Of a stretch of DNA of 8,231 bases, positions 458 through 7,697 are shown one piece after another (position 1 is the first letter of the stretch; the number at the start of each line of letters is the position of its first letter). The stretch spans positions 1-8,231 of the forward strand of contig CADBNG010000035.1 of assembly GCA_902795985.1 (NCBI GenBank), written 5' to 3'. The DNA comes from an uncultured Lachnospiraceae bacterium (lineage in GTDB: Bacteria; Bacillota_A; Clostridia; Lachnospirales; Lachnospiraceae). A program made the translations under genes and the position numbers. The notes under the pieces were generated by a model. It was not told where the DNA came from. It was given only the letters and a program-made list of their open reading frames with translations, and made no database searches.

Positions 458-1468
458 ATGCTTTCAAAACGCGAGAATCTGATAGAAACCCTGAAGGGGG
501 AACACGGTCATCCGGACCGCTTTGTCAATCAGTATGAACCCTTTTCCATCCTGTACGCCACTCCCGTTACGGTTCAGAGTCCCATGCCGACCTATGGGGG
601 CGAACCGGTTAAGGATGCCTGGGGCGTCACCAAATCATGGCCGCTCGGTACACCGGGCGCTTTCCCGATCCATGATGAGGAACATCTGGTCCTGAAAGAT
701 ATGGAAGACTGGCGGAGCCAGGTGAAGGCTCCCCGCCTGGATTTCTCGGAAGAAGAATGGCTCCCCTTTATCAAAATGGCAGAGGAAGTGGACCGGAAAG
801 AAACCTTTGCGACTCTTTTCTATGCCCCCGGCCTTTTCGAGCAGTGCCACTATCTCATGAACATGCAGAATTGCATGATGGCTTTTTATGAGTATCCGGA
901 TGAGATGCATGAACTGATCGAATACATTACCGAGTTTGAACTCTCCTACGCGGAGCTGGCCTGCAAGTACATAAAACCGGATGCTTACTTCCAGCATGAT
1001 GACTGGGGATCTCAAATCTCCACTTTCATGTCTCCGGACATGTTTGAGGAATTCTTCCTGCCTCATTATAAAAAACTGTACGGATATTATAAGAGCCACG
1101 GATGTGAGCTCATCATACATCACTCAGACTCCTATGCCAAAACGTTAGTGCCCTTCATGATCGAAATGGGTATTGATATCTGGCAGGGGGTTATGCGCAC
1201 CAACGATATTGAAGAACTGATCCCCAAATACGGCGATCAGATCATCTTCATGGGCGGGATCGACAGCGCCACCATCGACTTCCCGGACTGGAATGAACAG
1301 GTGGTGGAAAAGCAGGTCCGCGACGCCTGTGAAAAATACGGAAAATTCGGCAAGGGCTTCATCCCCTGCGCGTCACAGGGGCTCCCGATGAGTACCTTCC
1401 CCGGAGTTTACGAAGCCACTACCAAATATATCGACCAGATGAGCGCGGAGATGTTTCCGTTAAAATAA
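458..1468 (+). CDS. URO-D-fold (uroporphyrinogen decarboxylase family) protein A, likely methyltransferase-like
   Basis: This 336-residue protein has the length and pattern of the URO-D superfamily (HemE, MtaA/MtbA, CmuA). It lacks the N-terminal substrate-binding signature of true uroporphyrinogen decarboxylases (MRQAGR type), so a role in corrinoid or C1 transfer is more likely than haem synthesis. Visible landmarks are HDDWGS at 180-185, HHSDSY at 221-226, IWQG at 241-244, MGGID at 265-269 and PCASQG at 303-308. In MtaA-type enzymes the zinc site is His-x-Cys plus a late Cys. Here the middle position is Ser223, while His221 and Cys304 remain. Protein B (3619-4623) aligns along its whole length and carries the Cys. 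The ATG follows a weak GAGAG site and a leader ORF; the gene ends at a strong terminator. No corrinoid protein gene is visible. Superfamily is sure, reaction is not. Confidence 0.9.
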   Translation: MLSKRENLIETLKGEHGHPDRFVNQYEPFSILYATPVTVQSPMPTYGGEPVKDAWGVTKSWPLGTPGAFPIHDEEHLVLKDMEDWRSQVKAPRLDFSEEEWLPFIKMAEEVDRKETFATLFYAPGLFEQCHYLMNMQNCMMAFYEYPDEMHELIEYITEFELSYAELACKYIKPDAYFQHDDWGSQISTFMSPDMFEEFFLPHYKKLYGYYKSHGCELIIHHSDSYAKTLVPFMIEMGIDIWQGVMRTNDIEELIPKYGDQIIFMGGIDSATIDFPDWNEQVVEKQVRDACEKYGKFGKGFIPCASQGLPMSTFPGVYEATTKYIDQMSAEMFPLK

Positions 1469-1584: not shown

Positions 1585-2385
1585 TTACATGCAGTAGGTA
1601 CCGATCATCTGCTTTATCACCGACAAATTGAGCGGCTGCTGACTGGTCTCCATCGTCAGGATCAGTTGGATGCCGGGCATGATTCCGTTCTGCTCGTAGA
1701 ACCGGATTCTTTTCAGATTCTTTATTACATAATCAGGGTCATCCATCATCCCCAGATGTTCCCAGTAAAGCAGTTTTCTGTCCGGAATCCTCAATATCGT
1801 AAAATCCGGATGCAGGACAACACCTGCTTCCAGCGAAAGCGGGCATTCGTATCGATAGGGAATCTCCGCCTGAGCGAGCGCGTCCGCGATCATGACTTCT
1901 GATTTGGACCGGACACGCTCCCCTTTGTTTGAAAAGTGTTCCGGAACATCGCTGCTGATTTCTTTTGGCTGAAAAGGCATGCTCTGCCAACGTTCCGCAT
2001 AGACATGATCGGGCAATTCCACTGGAATGATGCTCCTTTTCCTGACATCCGACATCGATTCATAGATCTTTTTCAGGCAATCGGGATTGTAGTTTCTGAT
2101 GAAATGATCCAGCAACGCGGCCTGTTTTCCTGCTGCCGAAGCAATTTGCCGGTCATATTTTTTCTGGATCAGCGCAAGCGCCTTTTCTCTTTCCGCCGCC
2201 GGAAGATATCTGCCGTTCCTGTCCTTCGGATCGTGTCTTATATAAAACTGAACACCTTTCCCATGCCTGTTCACACAAACCGTCCCCTCCGGTGCTTTCC
2301 GGATCCTCTCTTCCGCGCTTTTTTCAATGGATTCGAATTTTGATCTCTCTTTTTCAAGGTGATCCAGCATCTTTTTTATCTGCAT
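1585..2385 (-). CDS. PD-(D/E)XK nuclease-like protein of unknown role
   Basis: This 266-residue protein has a charged, coiled-coil-prone N-terminus (about 1-32 and 62-85) and a C-terminal half resembling the PD-(D/E)XK nuclease fold. The core elements in order are SKSE (160-163, candidate acidic residue Glu163), PYRYE (176-180), HPDF (192-195, Asp194) and YWEHLG (207-212, Glu209). The usual ExK lysine is replaced by His210, a variation that in my memory is common in this Bacillota family. Residues 213-245 then hold conserved-looking DDPDY and a strand ending in LILTME. ATG at 2385 is preceded by AAGGG with 7-nt spacing. It converges on URO-D gene A, and the tandem array begins just upstream of its start. 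It could be a nuclease in repair, defence or mobile-element biology, or a degenerate domain. Fold is likely, substrate unknown. Confidence 0.8.
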   Translation of the reverse strand: MQIKKMLDHLEKERSKFESIEKSAEERIRKAPEGTVCVNRHGKGVQFYIRHDPKDRNGRYLPAAEREKALALIQKKYDRQIASAAGKQAALLDHFIRNYNPDCLKKIYESMSDVRKRSIIPVELPDHVYAERWQSMPFQPKEISSDVPEHFSNKGERVRSKSEVMIADALAQAEIPYRYECPLSLEAGVVLHPDFTILRIPDRKLLYWEHLGMMDDPDYVIKNLKRIRFYEQNGIMPGIQLILTMETSQQPLNLSVIKQMIGTYCM

Positions 2386-2451
2386 TCTCCATCCCTTCTT
2401 TCTTTTTCAATTATTTCTCACGAAACACAGAGTAAATTGGTTTTTTGTAGT

Positions 2452-3037
2452 TTTTCCATGCCTTCGCTGTCTCCCGCAACCGAGCTCCAGGCATAGGAAA
2501 TGTGATTTTTACAGCTTTTCCATGCATTTACCTGCTCCACAACCGGACTCCAGGCATGGGAAATGTGATTTTTACAGCTTTTCCATGCATTTACCTGCTC
2601 CAGCAACCGGGCTCCAGGCATGGGAAATGTGATTTTTGTACATTTTCCATGCCTTTACCTGCTCCAGCACCCCGACTCCGGGCATAGGAAATGTGATTTT
2701 TGCAGTTTTTCCATGCCTTCGACGTCTCCCGCAACCAGACTTCAGGCATAGGAAATTTGATTTTTGTACATTTTCCATGCGTTTACCTGCTTCAGCACCC
2801 CGACTCCGGGCATAGGAAATGTTATTTTTGCAGTTTTTCCATGCCTTTACCTGCTCCATCAGCCGGGCTCCAAGCATGGGAGATTTGATTTTTGCAGTTT
2901 TTCCATGCCTTTACCAGCTCCAGCCACCCGACCCCTGGCATAGGAAATTTAACTTTTGTTGATTTCCCATGCCTCTATCTCACTCAGCAACCCGACTCCG
3001 GGCACAGGAAACTTACTTTCCGTAGATTTTCCATGCC
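2452..3037. repeat. tandem array of nine 63-65 bp units plus a partial tenth, each with inverted repeats
   Basis: Units start at TTTTCCATGC: 2452, 2516, 2579, 2643, 2707, 2771, 2835, 2899, 2962 (diverged, ATTTCCCATG) and a partial copy at 3027. Each unit has a left arm TTTTCCATGCC, a C/T-rich middle of about 28 nt resembling ACCTGCTCCAGCAACC, a right arm GGCATAGGAAA or GGCATGGGAAA, and a T-rich link such as TGTGATTTTTGCAG. The arms are complementary apart from one extra purine on the right, so each unit can fold on itself (about 28-nt loop) or the right arm can pair with the next unit's left arm (about 14-nt loop). Most periods are 64 nt, not a multiple of three, so open frames crossing the array are not repeat proteins. 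No unique spacers are present. Units 8-9 are the most diverged. Confidence 0.95.
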
Positions 3038-3618: not shown

Positions 3619-4623
3619 ATGACCAAAAAAGAGAAGTTCCTGTCGGTAATGCACAACGAAAAACCTCTCAAGTGGATGGGGTATGGATTCGAAGCGTTCA
3701 CCCAGACCATGTTCCACTGTATCATTGACCCGATCTCCATATGGGATATCCTTTTCATCCAGGGGGAGAACGTTCTGGACCACTGGGGCGTCAACCACCG
3801 CTTCCTTCCCGGCGATCCCGGCATCATCCCGATGGTCAACGAGGAAAACCAGGTGATCAAGGATATCACTCACTGGCGGGACTATGTCACTTTTCCGGAG
3901 ATTCCCTCCGATCTGGACTGGAGCGCGACCCAGGCGCAGATCGCCGAAGTGGACCGCGATAACGAGCTGGTCATGATTCCCACGTTCCGCGGCCTGTTTG
4001 AACGGGCCCACTGCCTGATGACCTTTGAAGACACACTGATGAACATGTACGAAGAGCCCGAAGCCATGTATGATCTCTTCGGCGCCTATGCGGACTGGAA
4101 ACTCAAAGTGGCGGAAATGCTCTGCGACAATCTGGACTTTGACGTGATCCACAGCCACGACGACTGGGGCAGCAAGACGAATACGTTCTTCTCGGTTGAT
4201 ATCTTCCGGAAACTGCTGAAGCCCCATTACAAACGGCTTTATGATTATTATCACAAGCGCGGTAAAATCGTCCAGCACCACTGCGACTGTTACGCCGCCG
4301 AATTCGCGCCGGAACTGGCGGATCTGGGCGTGGAGATGTGGCAGGGAGTCCTTCCCTCCAACGATATTCCCGCCATCAAGAAAGCTACCGGCGGAAAGCT
4401 CCTCCTCATGGGCGGCCTGGACCAGGGTCTGATCGACCAGGCAGACGTCAGCGAAGAAGAAGTCCGCGCCGAGGTCCGGCGTGCCATCGACGAATACGCC
4501 CCCGGCGGCAGCTTTCTCCCCTGCATCGGCTCCCTGGAATGCCTGAACGGCTGGGTCACCCCCGTCGTCATTGACGAATGCAACAAATACGGCGCAGAGT
4601 GGCTCGCGCGCCAATCTGCCTGA
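3619..4623 (+). CDS. URO-D-fold (uroporphyrinogen decarboxylase family) protein B, likely methyltransferase-like
   Basis: This 334-residue paralogue of protein A shares the same landmarks at nearly the same positions: HDDWGS at 180-185, HHCDCY at 220-225, MWQG at 240-243, MGGLD at 264-268 and PCIGS at 301-305. Unlike A it has Cys222 two residues after His220, which with Cys302 restores the His-x-Cys...Cys zinc site of MtaA/MtbA-like corrinoid methyltransferases; Cys224 and Cys308 are additional nearby thiols. The true HemE N-terminal signature is missing. ATG at 3619 is chosen because AGGAGG at 3604-3609 lies 9 nt upstream. The gene has its own promoter and is followed by hairpins from 4697. 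Substrate and partner corrinoid protein are not visible in the window. A methyl donor or demethylation role is inference from the family. Confidence 0.9.
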   Translation: MTKKEKFLSVMHNEKPLKWMGYGFEAFTQTMFHCIIDPISIWDILFIQGENVLDHWGVNHRFLPGDPGIIPMVNEENQVIKDITHWRDYVTFPEIPSDLDWSATQAQIAEVDRDNELVMIPTFRGLFERAHCLMTFEDTLMNMYEEPEAMYDLFGAYADWKLKVAEMLCDNLDFDVIHSHDDWGSKTNTFFSVDIFRKLLKPHYKRLYDYYHKRGKIVQHHCDCYAAEFAPELADLGVEMWQGVLPSNDIPAIKKATGGKLLLMGGLDQGLIDQADVSEEEVRAEVRRAIDEYAPGGSFLPCIGSLECLNGWVTPVVIDECNKYGAEWLARQSA

Positions 4624-4895: not shown

Positions 4896-5477
4896 TCATA
4901 CCGCCCGGAACAGCCCGTGCCGGTTGCAATAACAATACAGGGCCCTTGTTCTGCTGATTCCGAAGCGCGCCTCCGCGTTTCCCTCCGGATACAGCTTCCG
5001 GAATTCCAGGCCGTCATCCTTCACAGCCAGGATAAAAGAGATGAAATGCGTCTTGCTCATCTCATGATCGATCGTTACGTAGTACTCATCTTCTGACTTT
5101 TCTATATGCATCCGATGCGCGTCGTCCCCGGTTTCCGCTTCCAGCGCCGGAAGAACGAGCCCGCAGCAGCAGATAACCGCTTCTCCCGTACTCTGAATAA
5201 TGTTTCCGCAGATCGGACACACATAGAGCTGCGTGCGCCGCATATTGAATGTCCTGTTGGTGTTGACCACATCTTCGCCGGAGAACAGTTCGATAACCGA
5301 GACTCCAAGGGCATCTGCCAGCGGCTCAATCAGTGAAACATCCGGGTATCCCCGTCCATTCTCCCATTTGGATACCGCCTTATCACTTACGTTCAGCTTC
5401 GCGGCAAGCTGATGCTGGGTCATTTTCCGGTTCTCGCGCAGACGCCGGATCATTGCACCGGTAACATACTGGTTCAT
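4896..5477 (-). CDS. XRE-family HTH regulator fused to a desulfoferrodoxin-like (superoxide reductase) domain
   Basis: This 193-residue protein begins with an XRE/HTH_3 DNA-binding domain (about 5-65), with MTQHQLAAKLNVSDKAVSKW as helices 2-3. Residues 84-112 match a desulforedoxin FeCys4 module: CPICGN (Cys87, Cys90) and CCCG (Cys105-Cys106 as the likely pair). Residues 116-193 match the superoxide reductase iron centre: His121 in AHRMHIE, His138 and His144 in IDHEMSKTHF, and Cys184 and His187 in CNRHGLF. So both iron sites of a two-iron desulfoferrodoxin appear intact. The position before His121, Lys in active enzymes (EKH), is Ala120, suggesting a sensor rather than an enzyme. I chose the ATG at 5477 because AGGAGG (5488-5493) is 10 nt upstream of it but only 1 nt from the ATG at 5486. 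Last gene of the minus-strand cluster. Redox sensing is inference. Confidence 0.88.
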   Translation of the reverse strand: MNQYVTGAMIRRLRENRKMTQHQLAAKLNVSDKAVSKWENGRGYPDVSLIEPLADALGVSVIELFSGEDVVNTNRTFNMRRTQLYVCPICGNIIQSTGEAVICCCGLVLPALEAETGDDAHRMHIEKSEDEYYVTIDHEMSKTHFISFILAVKDDGLEFRKLYPEGNAEARFGISRTRALYCYCNRHGLFRAV

Positions 5478-5487
5478 GTTCTGCATA

Positions 5488-7440: not shown

Positions 7441-7682
7441 GCCGCTTCCCTCAAACGCGTCTTAGTATGGTCTTATTTGCAGTTCATCGGTTTTCGGGCC
7501 TTCATGTGAAGGATACATCCGTTTTGTTTTCTCCGTCAATACGCTGCAAAAAATGATGGCCCCAGGATAGTTTTATACCGCCAAAGCGGCATCAGCCTGA
7601 CTCTTCCGGGGCACGAGTGATTCATCGTTCCGCTCAACCCCTTTCTTCTCCTGTCTATCTTCGTCCGGATCCGGGCACAGGA
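7441..7682 (-). promoter_or_regulatory. candidate structured 5' leader of the MFS gene
   Basis: From a predicted start near 7682 to the ATG at 7440 lies a leader of about 240 nt. On the minus strand it offers these helices: TCCTGT (7682-7677) with ACAGGA (7654-7649); ATGCCGC (7592-7586) with GCGGTAT (7581-7575); and GCCCC (7612-7608) with GGGGC (7563-7559). Its CCCC can instead pair with GGGG at 7641-7638, together with ACGA (7628-7625)/TCGT (7616-7613). TGATG (7594-7590) can pair with CATCA (7558-7554), right before TTTTTT (7553-7548), competing with the second helix. Mutually exclusive helices with a U-run suggest a riboswitch or attenuator, but I match no known class and the terminator stem is weak. 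Confidence 0.35.
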
Positions 7683-7697
7683 AATCTGATTATTGAG
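7653..7697. repeat. diverged solitary copy of the 64-bp array unit
   Basis: TCCGGGCACAGGAAA, ending at 7684, is identical to 15 nt of array unit 9 (right arm near 2998-3011), and the next bases CTGATTATTG resemble the array link TTGATTTTTG. Upstream, TCTATCT (7653-7659) also occurs in unit 9. The left arm is replaced by TCCTGT (7649-7654), which still pairs with ACAGGA (7677-7682). The copy covers the -10 box and the first hairpin of the MFS leader. Confidence 0.5.

What the first reader, a model, noticed from the sequence alone, without database searches (positions are those of the whole stretch)
2452..3037. Tandem array of dyad-symmetric 64-bp units with two competing hairpin registers
Nine full units carry complementary arms. 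Each right arm can pair with its own left arm (about 28-nt loop) or with the next unit's left arm (about 14-nt loop). The link often extends the second register: TGT...ACA next to the arms recurs in links with different sequences (ACAGC and GTACA types), which looks like pairing conservation. The unit is not a CRISPR, not coding (64-nt period), and I cannot assign it to a named REP/BIME-type family. It could be a transcribed multi-hairpin RNA, a protein-binding array or a palindromic repeat family.
Basis: partly seen in the sequence, partly recalled or inferred. Interest (0 to 1): 0.72.

Follow-up and report, generated by a model that had tools for sequence, protein, structure and literature searches.

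The report
Nuclease gene with matched repeat array
Beside an unnamed DNA-cutting-enzyme gene of a gut bacterium lies a row of 64-base repeats; relatives of the gene also tend to carry a private row, whose spacing comes in whole turns of the DNA helix, so the row is probably the enzyme's own docking strip and the pair may be a new kind of genetic element.

Summary
The array is real: nine 64-bp units with imperfect dyads, window 2442-3037. The claimed pairing conservation is not supported. The neighbouring gene is the key: the array ends 56 bp from an unnamed 266-aa solitary nuclease of PD-(D/E)XK type. Tandem periodicity occurs upstream of this gene family in 54 of 73 loci, against 8 of 64 and 8 of 65 control regions. 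Unit sequences differ, but periods cluster near 42, 53, 64, 74 and 85 bp, multiples of about 10.55 bp: 72 arrays, R=0.83; 27 arrays from new loci, z=5.4. That points to double-stranded DNA sites on one face of the helix, not to an RNA. At several orthologous loci the protein's N-terminal half has been replaced while nuclease domain and flanks stay; in two such pairs the array has changed with it. Solo arrays or units occur elsewhere in 2 of 4 genomes tested. Best reading: a sequence-specific nuclease with its own phased binding-site array, probably a selfish element working like REPIN-RAYT with an unrelated enzyme. Binding, cutting and movement are inferred. The window's own genome is not held, so its copy number is unknown.

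The parts
2442..3037 (.). Tandem array, about nine 64-bp units (one of 63); the 128-bp reading scores higher than the 64-bp one (two-unit higher-order repeat)
2452..2462 (+). First left arm TTTTCCATGCC; a left arm recurs in each unit, the last at 3027-3037
   Evidence: sequence, alignments
2490..2500 (+). First right arm GGCATAGGAAA (inverted half-site); further right arms at 2553, 2617, 2681, 2745, 2809, 2873, 2937 and 3001
1585..2385 (-). Partner gene: 266-aa solitary PD-(D/E)XK-type nuclease; the array lies directly upstream of it (56 bp between)
   Evidence: 1748 proteins at E<=0.001 among 2307 candidates; no Pfam or NCBIfam match; AlphaFold model pLDDT 92.6
1996..2385 (-). N-terminal region, residues 1-130: helical hairpin with a small beta tip; the part that differs between orthologous loci, so the inferred specificity domain
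1588..1938 (-). C-terminal nuclease domain, residues 150-266 (invariant E163, D194, E209, D215, D216 in 30 aligned relatives)
2391..2400 (-). Ribosome-binding-site-like AAGAAGGGAT 5 bp before the start codon, between array and gene
   Evidence: read from the sequence
7674..7691 (+). Stray half-unit (GGCACAGGAAATCTGATT, 0 mismatches to the degenerate pattern) 4.6 kb from the array
   Evidence: 8 matches in the window, 0.01 expected by chance; the other 7 lie in the array

Best explanation
The array is a set of helically phased double-stranded-DNA binding sites for the nuclease encoded next to it. Each unit carries an inverted pair of half-sites; unit lengths vary by whole helical turns, so every unit presents the same face and nuclease dimers could line up on it. 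The N-terminal region reads the half-site and the C-terminal domain cuts. Array and N-terminal region change together, so that each copy of the system has its own private code. The pair most likely persists as a selfish, REPIN-RAYT-like module: nuclease-induced breaks and their repair would expand, homogenise and occasionally seed units elsewhere. SHOWN by computation: association, phasing between arrays, N-terminal replacement at conserved loci, solo copies in some genomes, nuclease-type fold of the predicted model. INFERRED: binding, dimers, cutting, co-replacement as a general rule, movement.
Against: 24 of 105 testable upstream regions had no significant array; in L037, L040 and L059 it is downstream only. 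The two nuclease matches on Butyrivibrio contig C1 have no array nearby. Secondary lags within arrays are not significantly phased (n=68, z=1.26). Co-replacement rests on few pairs: only six orthologous pairs have arrays on both sides. L018/L020 keep partly similar units at N-terminus 60% (excess 14.2), and so does the non-orthologous pair L047/L068 at 64% (21.3). L164, L032 and L078 have no significant array, nor do the conserved control loci L177-L180. Over 1830 pairs unit similarity does not track N-terminal identity. Only 19 of 63 arrays have a dyad better than all 30 shuffles. Two of four genomes have no solo copies. No clean empty site of the nuclease. The N-terminal model resembles no known DNA-binding domain; nuclease matches are middling, coiled-coil rows score alike, and Foldseek had none at E<=0.001. 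No expression or binding data.
Confidence: 0.55

Rival explanations
1. The array is mainly an autoregulatory operator or titration sink: the nuclease is a defence or addiction effector that sits on, and is silenced by, its phased array. The pair is kept for host benefit or addiction, not for spreading; solo arrays are remnants.
For: Periodicity is far commoner upstream (54 of 73) than downstream (27 of 78), and 50 of 63 arrays end within 155 bp of the estimated start (recounted). The C-terminal domain matches the C-terminus of PADLOC phage-defence candidate PDC-S68 (E 1e-28).
Against: Downstream-only and two-sided arrays (L008, L013, L018, L062); solo arrays and single units in G002; no recurrent partner gene (the commonest neighbour family, ABC-transporter-like, is in 9 of 112 loci).
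Confidence: 0.27
2. The array is transcribed and works as a multi-hairpin RNA (leader, sponge or guide precursor).
For: Both strands fold better than shuffles; dyads in two registers.
Against: No covariation in the window or in the G002 unit family (odds ratio 0.12, the wrong direction, Fisher p 0.10; the other register p 0.59). Periods follow the DNA helix, which RNA hairpins with free linkers do not need. No guide-like variable segment seen in the aligned units.
Confidence: 0.07
3. Some other host protein binds the array, and the nuclease gene is linked only by hitch-hiking or a shared insertion site.
For: No binding data; the N-terminal fold is not a recognised DNA-binding domain; all-pair similarity of units does not follow the protein.
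Against: N-terminus and array both changed in L047/L077 and L058/L070 while the nuclease domain stayed closer; association seen in three phyla.
Confidence: 0.08
4. An ordinary minisatellite grown by slippage, without function.
For: Higher-order 128-bp repeat and unequal units are typical of slippage or unequal exchange.
Against: Quantised periods and attachment to one gene family.
Confidence: 0.03

Closest known systems
REPIN-RAYT (REP sequences with REP-associated tyrosine transposases)
   Same: One enzyme gene with its own flavour of palindromic repeats beside it, several enzymes in a genome each with a different flavour, some clusters in tandem, dispersed copies (PMC3116915, passages). Here solo arrays or units in G001 and G002, and different units beside the copies in G001 (L005, L011, L019, L081).
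   Different: The enzyme looks like a PD-(D/E)XK-type nuclease, not a Y1 transposase; a tandem array is the usual form; unit lengths are quantised in helical turns; few dispersed copies found.
EDxHD homing endonucleases (I-Bth0305I)
   Different: Those are mostly phage enzymes; here the genes found are bacterial (17 candidate stretches in viral contigs, none encoding a relative) and carry an array of many sites.
PADLOC PDC-S68 (phage defence candidate)
   Same: C-terminal nuclease domain (window residues 150-263, E 1e-28).
   Different: PDC-S68 profiles are 1202-1273 positions long; this protein matches only the last domain and has its own N-terminus and array.
Iteron or operator arrays of replication and partition proteins (recalled)
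   Same: Direct repeats phased to the DNA helix, bound by a protein encoded nearby.
   Different: Partner is a nuclease, unit is a long dyad; no gene family recurs in more than 9 of 112 neighbourhoods.

Membership tests
REPIN-RAYT | Y1/HUH tyrosine transposase gene (RAYT) | tested here: not met
   The window protein has no Pfam match; among the 17 families matched by any of 30 relatives at E<=1 there is no Y1 transposase; model C-terminus is PD-(D/E)XK-like
REPIN-RAYT | Palindromic repeats immediately beside the enzyme gene | tested here: met
   Window: dyad array beside the gene. Relatives: 54 of 73 upstream regions periodic; 19 of 63 arrays with a dyad better than all 30 shuffles
REPIN-RAYT | Copies of the same repeat dispersed in the genome | tested here: inconclusive
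   Met in G001 and G002, not in G003 or G205; the window's genome is not held
REPIN-RAYT | GTAG or CGTC tag at one end of the palindrome (title and cut-off abstract of PMC3733652 in the listing; said there of most, not all, REPs) | tested here: not met
   GTAG precedes the left arm in 2 of 10 links of the window; the others read ACAG, GCAG, GTAC or GTTG
EDxHD homing endonuclease | EDxHD-type catalytic domain | tested here: inconclusive
EDxHD homing endonuclease | Gene lies inside its own recognition site and invades empty alleles | tested here: inconclusive
   L008 and L062 have arrays on both sides; no clean empty site found
CRISPR | Identical repeats separated by unrelated spacers, cas genes | tested here: not met
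   The whole unit is conserved, 87% mean column identity; no cas family among the matches of seven window proteins
PADLOC PDC-S68 defence protein | Full-length protein of about 1200 aa | tested here: not met
   266 aa; best profile matched only at positions 1100-1217 of 1221
Named structured RNA | Match to an Rfam covariance model at the gathering score | tested here: not met
   0 matches in the window, 4227 families

The most novel reading that the evidence does not exclude
A new class of two-part bacterial element: a solitary EDxHD/TnsA-like nuclease whose hypervariable N-terminus is matched to a private, helically phased tandem array. Array plus N-terminus move as a specificity cassette, several mutually orthogonal copies share one genome, and the arrays can spread without the gene. 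The nuclease may form a filament on its array, making the array a DNA-encoded restraint (antidote) or launch pad.
Probability: 0.45. Interest if true: 0.88.

Novelty: categorically new. Interest (0 to 1): 0.77.

Why it matters
The family is large: 1748 proteins at E<=0.001. Of 200 genomes drawn from one bacterial family, 70 had a match of any length, 55 of them one at E<=1e-40; one genome had nine matches. It crosses phyla (Bacillota, Fibrobacterota, Spirochaetota), yet the window member has no Pfam or NCBIfam name. A repeat period quantised by the DNA helix is a sequence-independent sign of a nucleoprotein array. If array and N-terminus are a lock and key, the natural pairs are a ready data set for learning how a small protein region reads DNA. 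The system would also be a second, enzymatically unrelated solution to what REPIN-RAYT does.

Tried and rejected
Sequence search for the array itself: 0 exact link matches in genome contigs, one match in viral contigs at a single site without a repeat (L001, taken as chance), none in phages or plasmids. CRISPR, Rfam RNA and tRNA: nothing.

RNA covariation: tested three ways, none supportive.

Recognition code: unit similarity over 1830 pairs of 61 arrays was unrelated to N- or C-terminal identity (Spearman -0.005 and 0.009); excess appears only in the 25 pairs with N-terminal identity of 50% or more.

Phasing within single arrays: not significant overall, although single loci (L080, L067, L072, L264) look phased.

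Empty site: the Butyrivibrio locus of L132 and the L005 locus did not give one. Around solo array L270 the two flank matches lie 255 bp apart in G322 and 911 bp apart in G002, so the array is probably absent there, but not shown to the base.

Neighbour genes: no recurrent partner. N-terminal fold: coiled-hairpin matches. One structural row was TasH of the TIGR system; it covers only the coiled hairpin, so I rejected a TIGR-Tas reading (system recalled).

Papers: nine answered searches. None of the titles and abstract starts listed describes such a nuclease-array pair; two searches listed only 15 of 137 and 20 of 9,493 papers. Only open-licence PMC is held. PMC3943268 and PMC3116915 were seen as passages; PMC3733652 as title and cut-off abstract.

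Rows dropped: searches dropped 5 and 3 partial or over-long hits and removed repeated proteins (136 records to 112; 12). One repeated protein still stood in each set (L011/L012, L158/L176); one search gives the numbers without them. Periods of 24-30 bp were left out of the phase tests: 8 of 81, 4 of 32; my sub-multiple rule put some of them there (L046, L048, L054 and L069 have their strongest lag at 54, 85, 74 and 74). A few loci of the second set had been looked at before. The tree labels are the uncorrected periods. One search printed only pairs with flank matches on both sides and at most 99.5% protein identity; one search took 14 chosen pairs. One search used the 63 arrays with a TRF consensus.

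Full report
What was claimed. A 64-bp tandem array with two dyad registers, 2452-3037. It is there: TRF gives period 64, 8.9 copies from 2442, nine units align at 87%, and both registers pair better than slid versions. There is also a 128-bp higher-order repeat. The claimed conservation of pairing in the links is not borne out: no two-sided changes in the own register, and in the next-unit register no more than shuffling gives.

Where it lies. The window looks like a rumen or gut Lachnospiraceae contig (a URO-D protein is 90% identical to a protein of a Lachnospiraceae MAG). No genome is held for it. The array lies between a minus-strand gene (1585-2385, 266 aa) and a plus-strand URO-D-family gene at 3619. 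The exact link pattern occurs nowhere in genome contigs, and the array matches no phage or plasmid record. A sequence search alone would have ended there.

The array goes with the gene. Of 348 confirmed loci in genome contigs the best 80 were returned. A periodicity scan of up to 900 bp upstream was significant in 54 of 73 testable regions, the window among them; downstream 27 of 78; control windows 3 to 3.9 kb away 8 of 64 and 8 of 65. Units printed from 33 arrays are mostly unrelated to the eye. Some loci have arrays on both sides (L008, L013, L018, L062), and L037, L040 and L059 only downstream. A scan of 366,742 bp of one Butyrivibrio contig and of 19,901 bp of another, the latter chosen because it holds two nuclease genes, gave a mixed picture: both genes of the second stretch have 54-bp arrays (41 and 81-84 bp away, with overlapping rows to 250 bp), while the two nuclease matches on the first contig have none. 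Other non-coding arrays there were 31-33 bp (one also read as 66) and one of 42 bp, 18 kb from a nuclease match. No neighbouring gene recurs: the commonest family is in 9 of 112 loci.

Period is quantised. In 113 proteins, 105 upstream regions were testable and 81 significant. With fundamental lags corrected, 73 lie between 31 and 130 bp: 42-44, 52-54, 61-64, 73-75, 84-85, 95, 104-106 and 127-128 dominate, with a few at 31-40. The best modulus is 10.55 bp, R=0.83, nR2=50.6; without one repeated protein 72, R=0.83, nR2=49.7. On new loci, 54 proteins, 50 testable, 32 significant, 28 in range, u=0.73, z=5.44 at the modulus and phase fixed from the first set; without one repeated locus 53, 49, 31, 27, u=0.74, z=5.41. 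Relatedness does not explain it: one array per 50%-identity cluster gives 51 clusters and R=0.83; at 45%, 25 clusters and R=0.80; at 40% only 4 clusters remain, R=0.46, which decides nothing. On the protein tree the classes are scattered (58 changes over all groups, 'none' and 'short' included; shuffled mean 74.3). A test of secondary spacings within arrays failed (n=68, z=1.26), so the claim rests on differences between arrays. About 10.5 bp is the helical repeat of B-DNA (recalled): the units behave as double-stranded DNA sites on one face.

Dyads. Of 63 arrays with a consensus unit, 19 had a dyad better than all 30 shuffles and 29 one at p<=0.1. Among those 29, the shorter of the two arm spacings is 21-32 bp in 26 (my recount; for 53-bp units it cannot exceed 27), and the other spacing takes up the rest of the unit. 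In the G002 family the core GGCATAGG/CCTATGCC is kept while the adjacent base is mostly mismatched (19 of 30 A opposite C) and does not covary. That fits a protein reading half-sites better than a conserved hairpin.

N-terminus and array. Among loci with matching flanks on both sides, the C-terminal 125 residues are often much closer than the N-terminal 130: L047/L077 92 against 65% (flanks 92%), L032/L048 90 against 62% (flanks 90%), L164/L167 82 against 34% (flanks 85%; dS 0.73 against 1.85), L069/L078 with the first 60 residues replaced (dS 0.14 against 2.2). Arrays can be compared in fewer pairs, because L032, L078 and L164 have no significant array. Six orthologous pairs have arrays on both sides. 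Unlike: L047/L077 (both 52 bp; unit excess 1.2; upstream score 15 against a shuffled 11) and L058/L070 (74 and 73 bp; N 52%, C 69%, flanks 77%; 16 against 10). Partly alike: L018/L020 (N 60%; unit excess 14.2). Alike: L067/L072 (N 83%; 116 against 12), L166/L167 (N nearly identical; 466 against 12) and, by eye, the downstream arrays of L040/L059 (N 76%). Other conserved controls (L177-L180, N 95% or more) align upstream (444-496 against about 10) but have no significant array. Over 1830 pairs of 61 arrays, unit similarity appears only above 50% N-terminal identity. So the array follows the N-terminus in these few pairs, with L018/L020 in between; it is a lead, not yet a rule.

Copies without the gene. 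Querying the genome of L005 with its array finds two more 64-bp arrays on contigs without a nuclease match. The genome of L008, with a single nuclease match, has four further places: arrays of 8.8 and 6.4 units, and two places with one or little more than one unit. In the other 18 genomes of its genus no match to the repeat was reported, with at most 20 first-look candidates scored per genome. Two other arrays had no further copy in their genomes. In the window a stray half-unit lies at 7674-7691.

Reading. The simplest account is a matched pair: a sequence-specific nuclease and its own phased binding sites. Several copies per genome with different arrays suggest selection for not cross-reacting. 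Why a nuclease keeps a strip of its own sites is open: mobile element (preferred, because of solo copies and two-sided arrays), or restraint and operator of a defence or addiction enzyme. It works like REPIN-RAYT (PMC3116915, passages) but fails that family's defining enzyme. The EDxHD enzyme I-Bth0305I, the best nuclease match, dimerises on nearly 60 bp (PMC3943268, passages), which would fit one unit per dimer. The nine answered paper searches listed no description; the library is open-licence PMC only, so 'categorically new' is a provisional rating.

Noticed in passing
window 7674-7691: A stray half-unit of the array (GGCACAGGAAATCTGATT) 4.6 kb away; 0.01 matches to the pattern expected by chance.
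   Followed up: partly
window 4896-5486 (-): HTH protein whose C-terminal part resembles desulfoferrodoxin (TIGR00320, 56.7 bits, below its cut-off); unusual fusion.
   Followed up: no
window 458-1468 (+) and 3619-4623 (+): Two URO-D-family genes with weak MtaA/CmuA methyltransferase matches flank the nuclease-array pair.
   Followed up: no
G206 contig C129, loci L130 and L140: Two nuclease loci about 43 kb apart in opposite orientation are 100% identical over 3777 bp: a very recent inverted duplication or an assembly artefact.
   Followed up: no
G040, G084, G179, G195 and others: ORFs of about 1100-1260 aa match the model only in its nuclease domain, like PDC-S68.
   Followed up: no
L184-L188 (G205 contig C1): Another non-coding repeat family in Butyrivibrio, 31-33 bp units often with CCTTCCCC, not near a nuclease match.
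   Followed up: no
L011 and L012: 8.4 kb including array and nuclease are 99.2% identical between two MAGs held as different species: recent transfer, close kinship or contamination.
   Followed up: no
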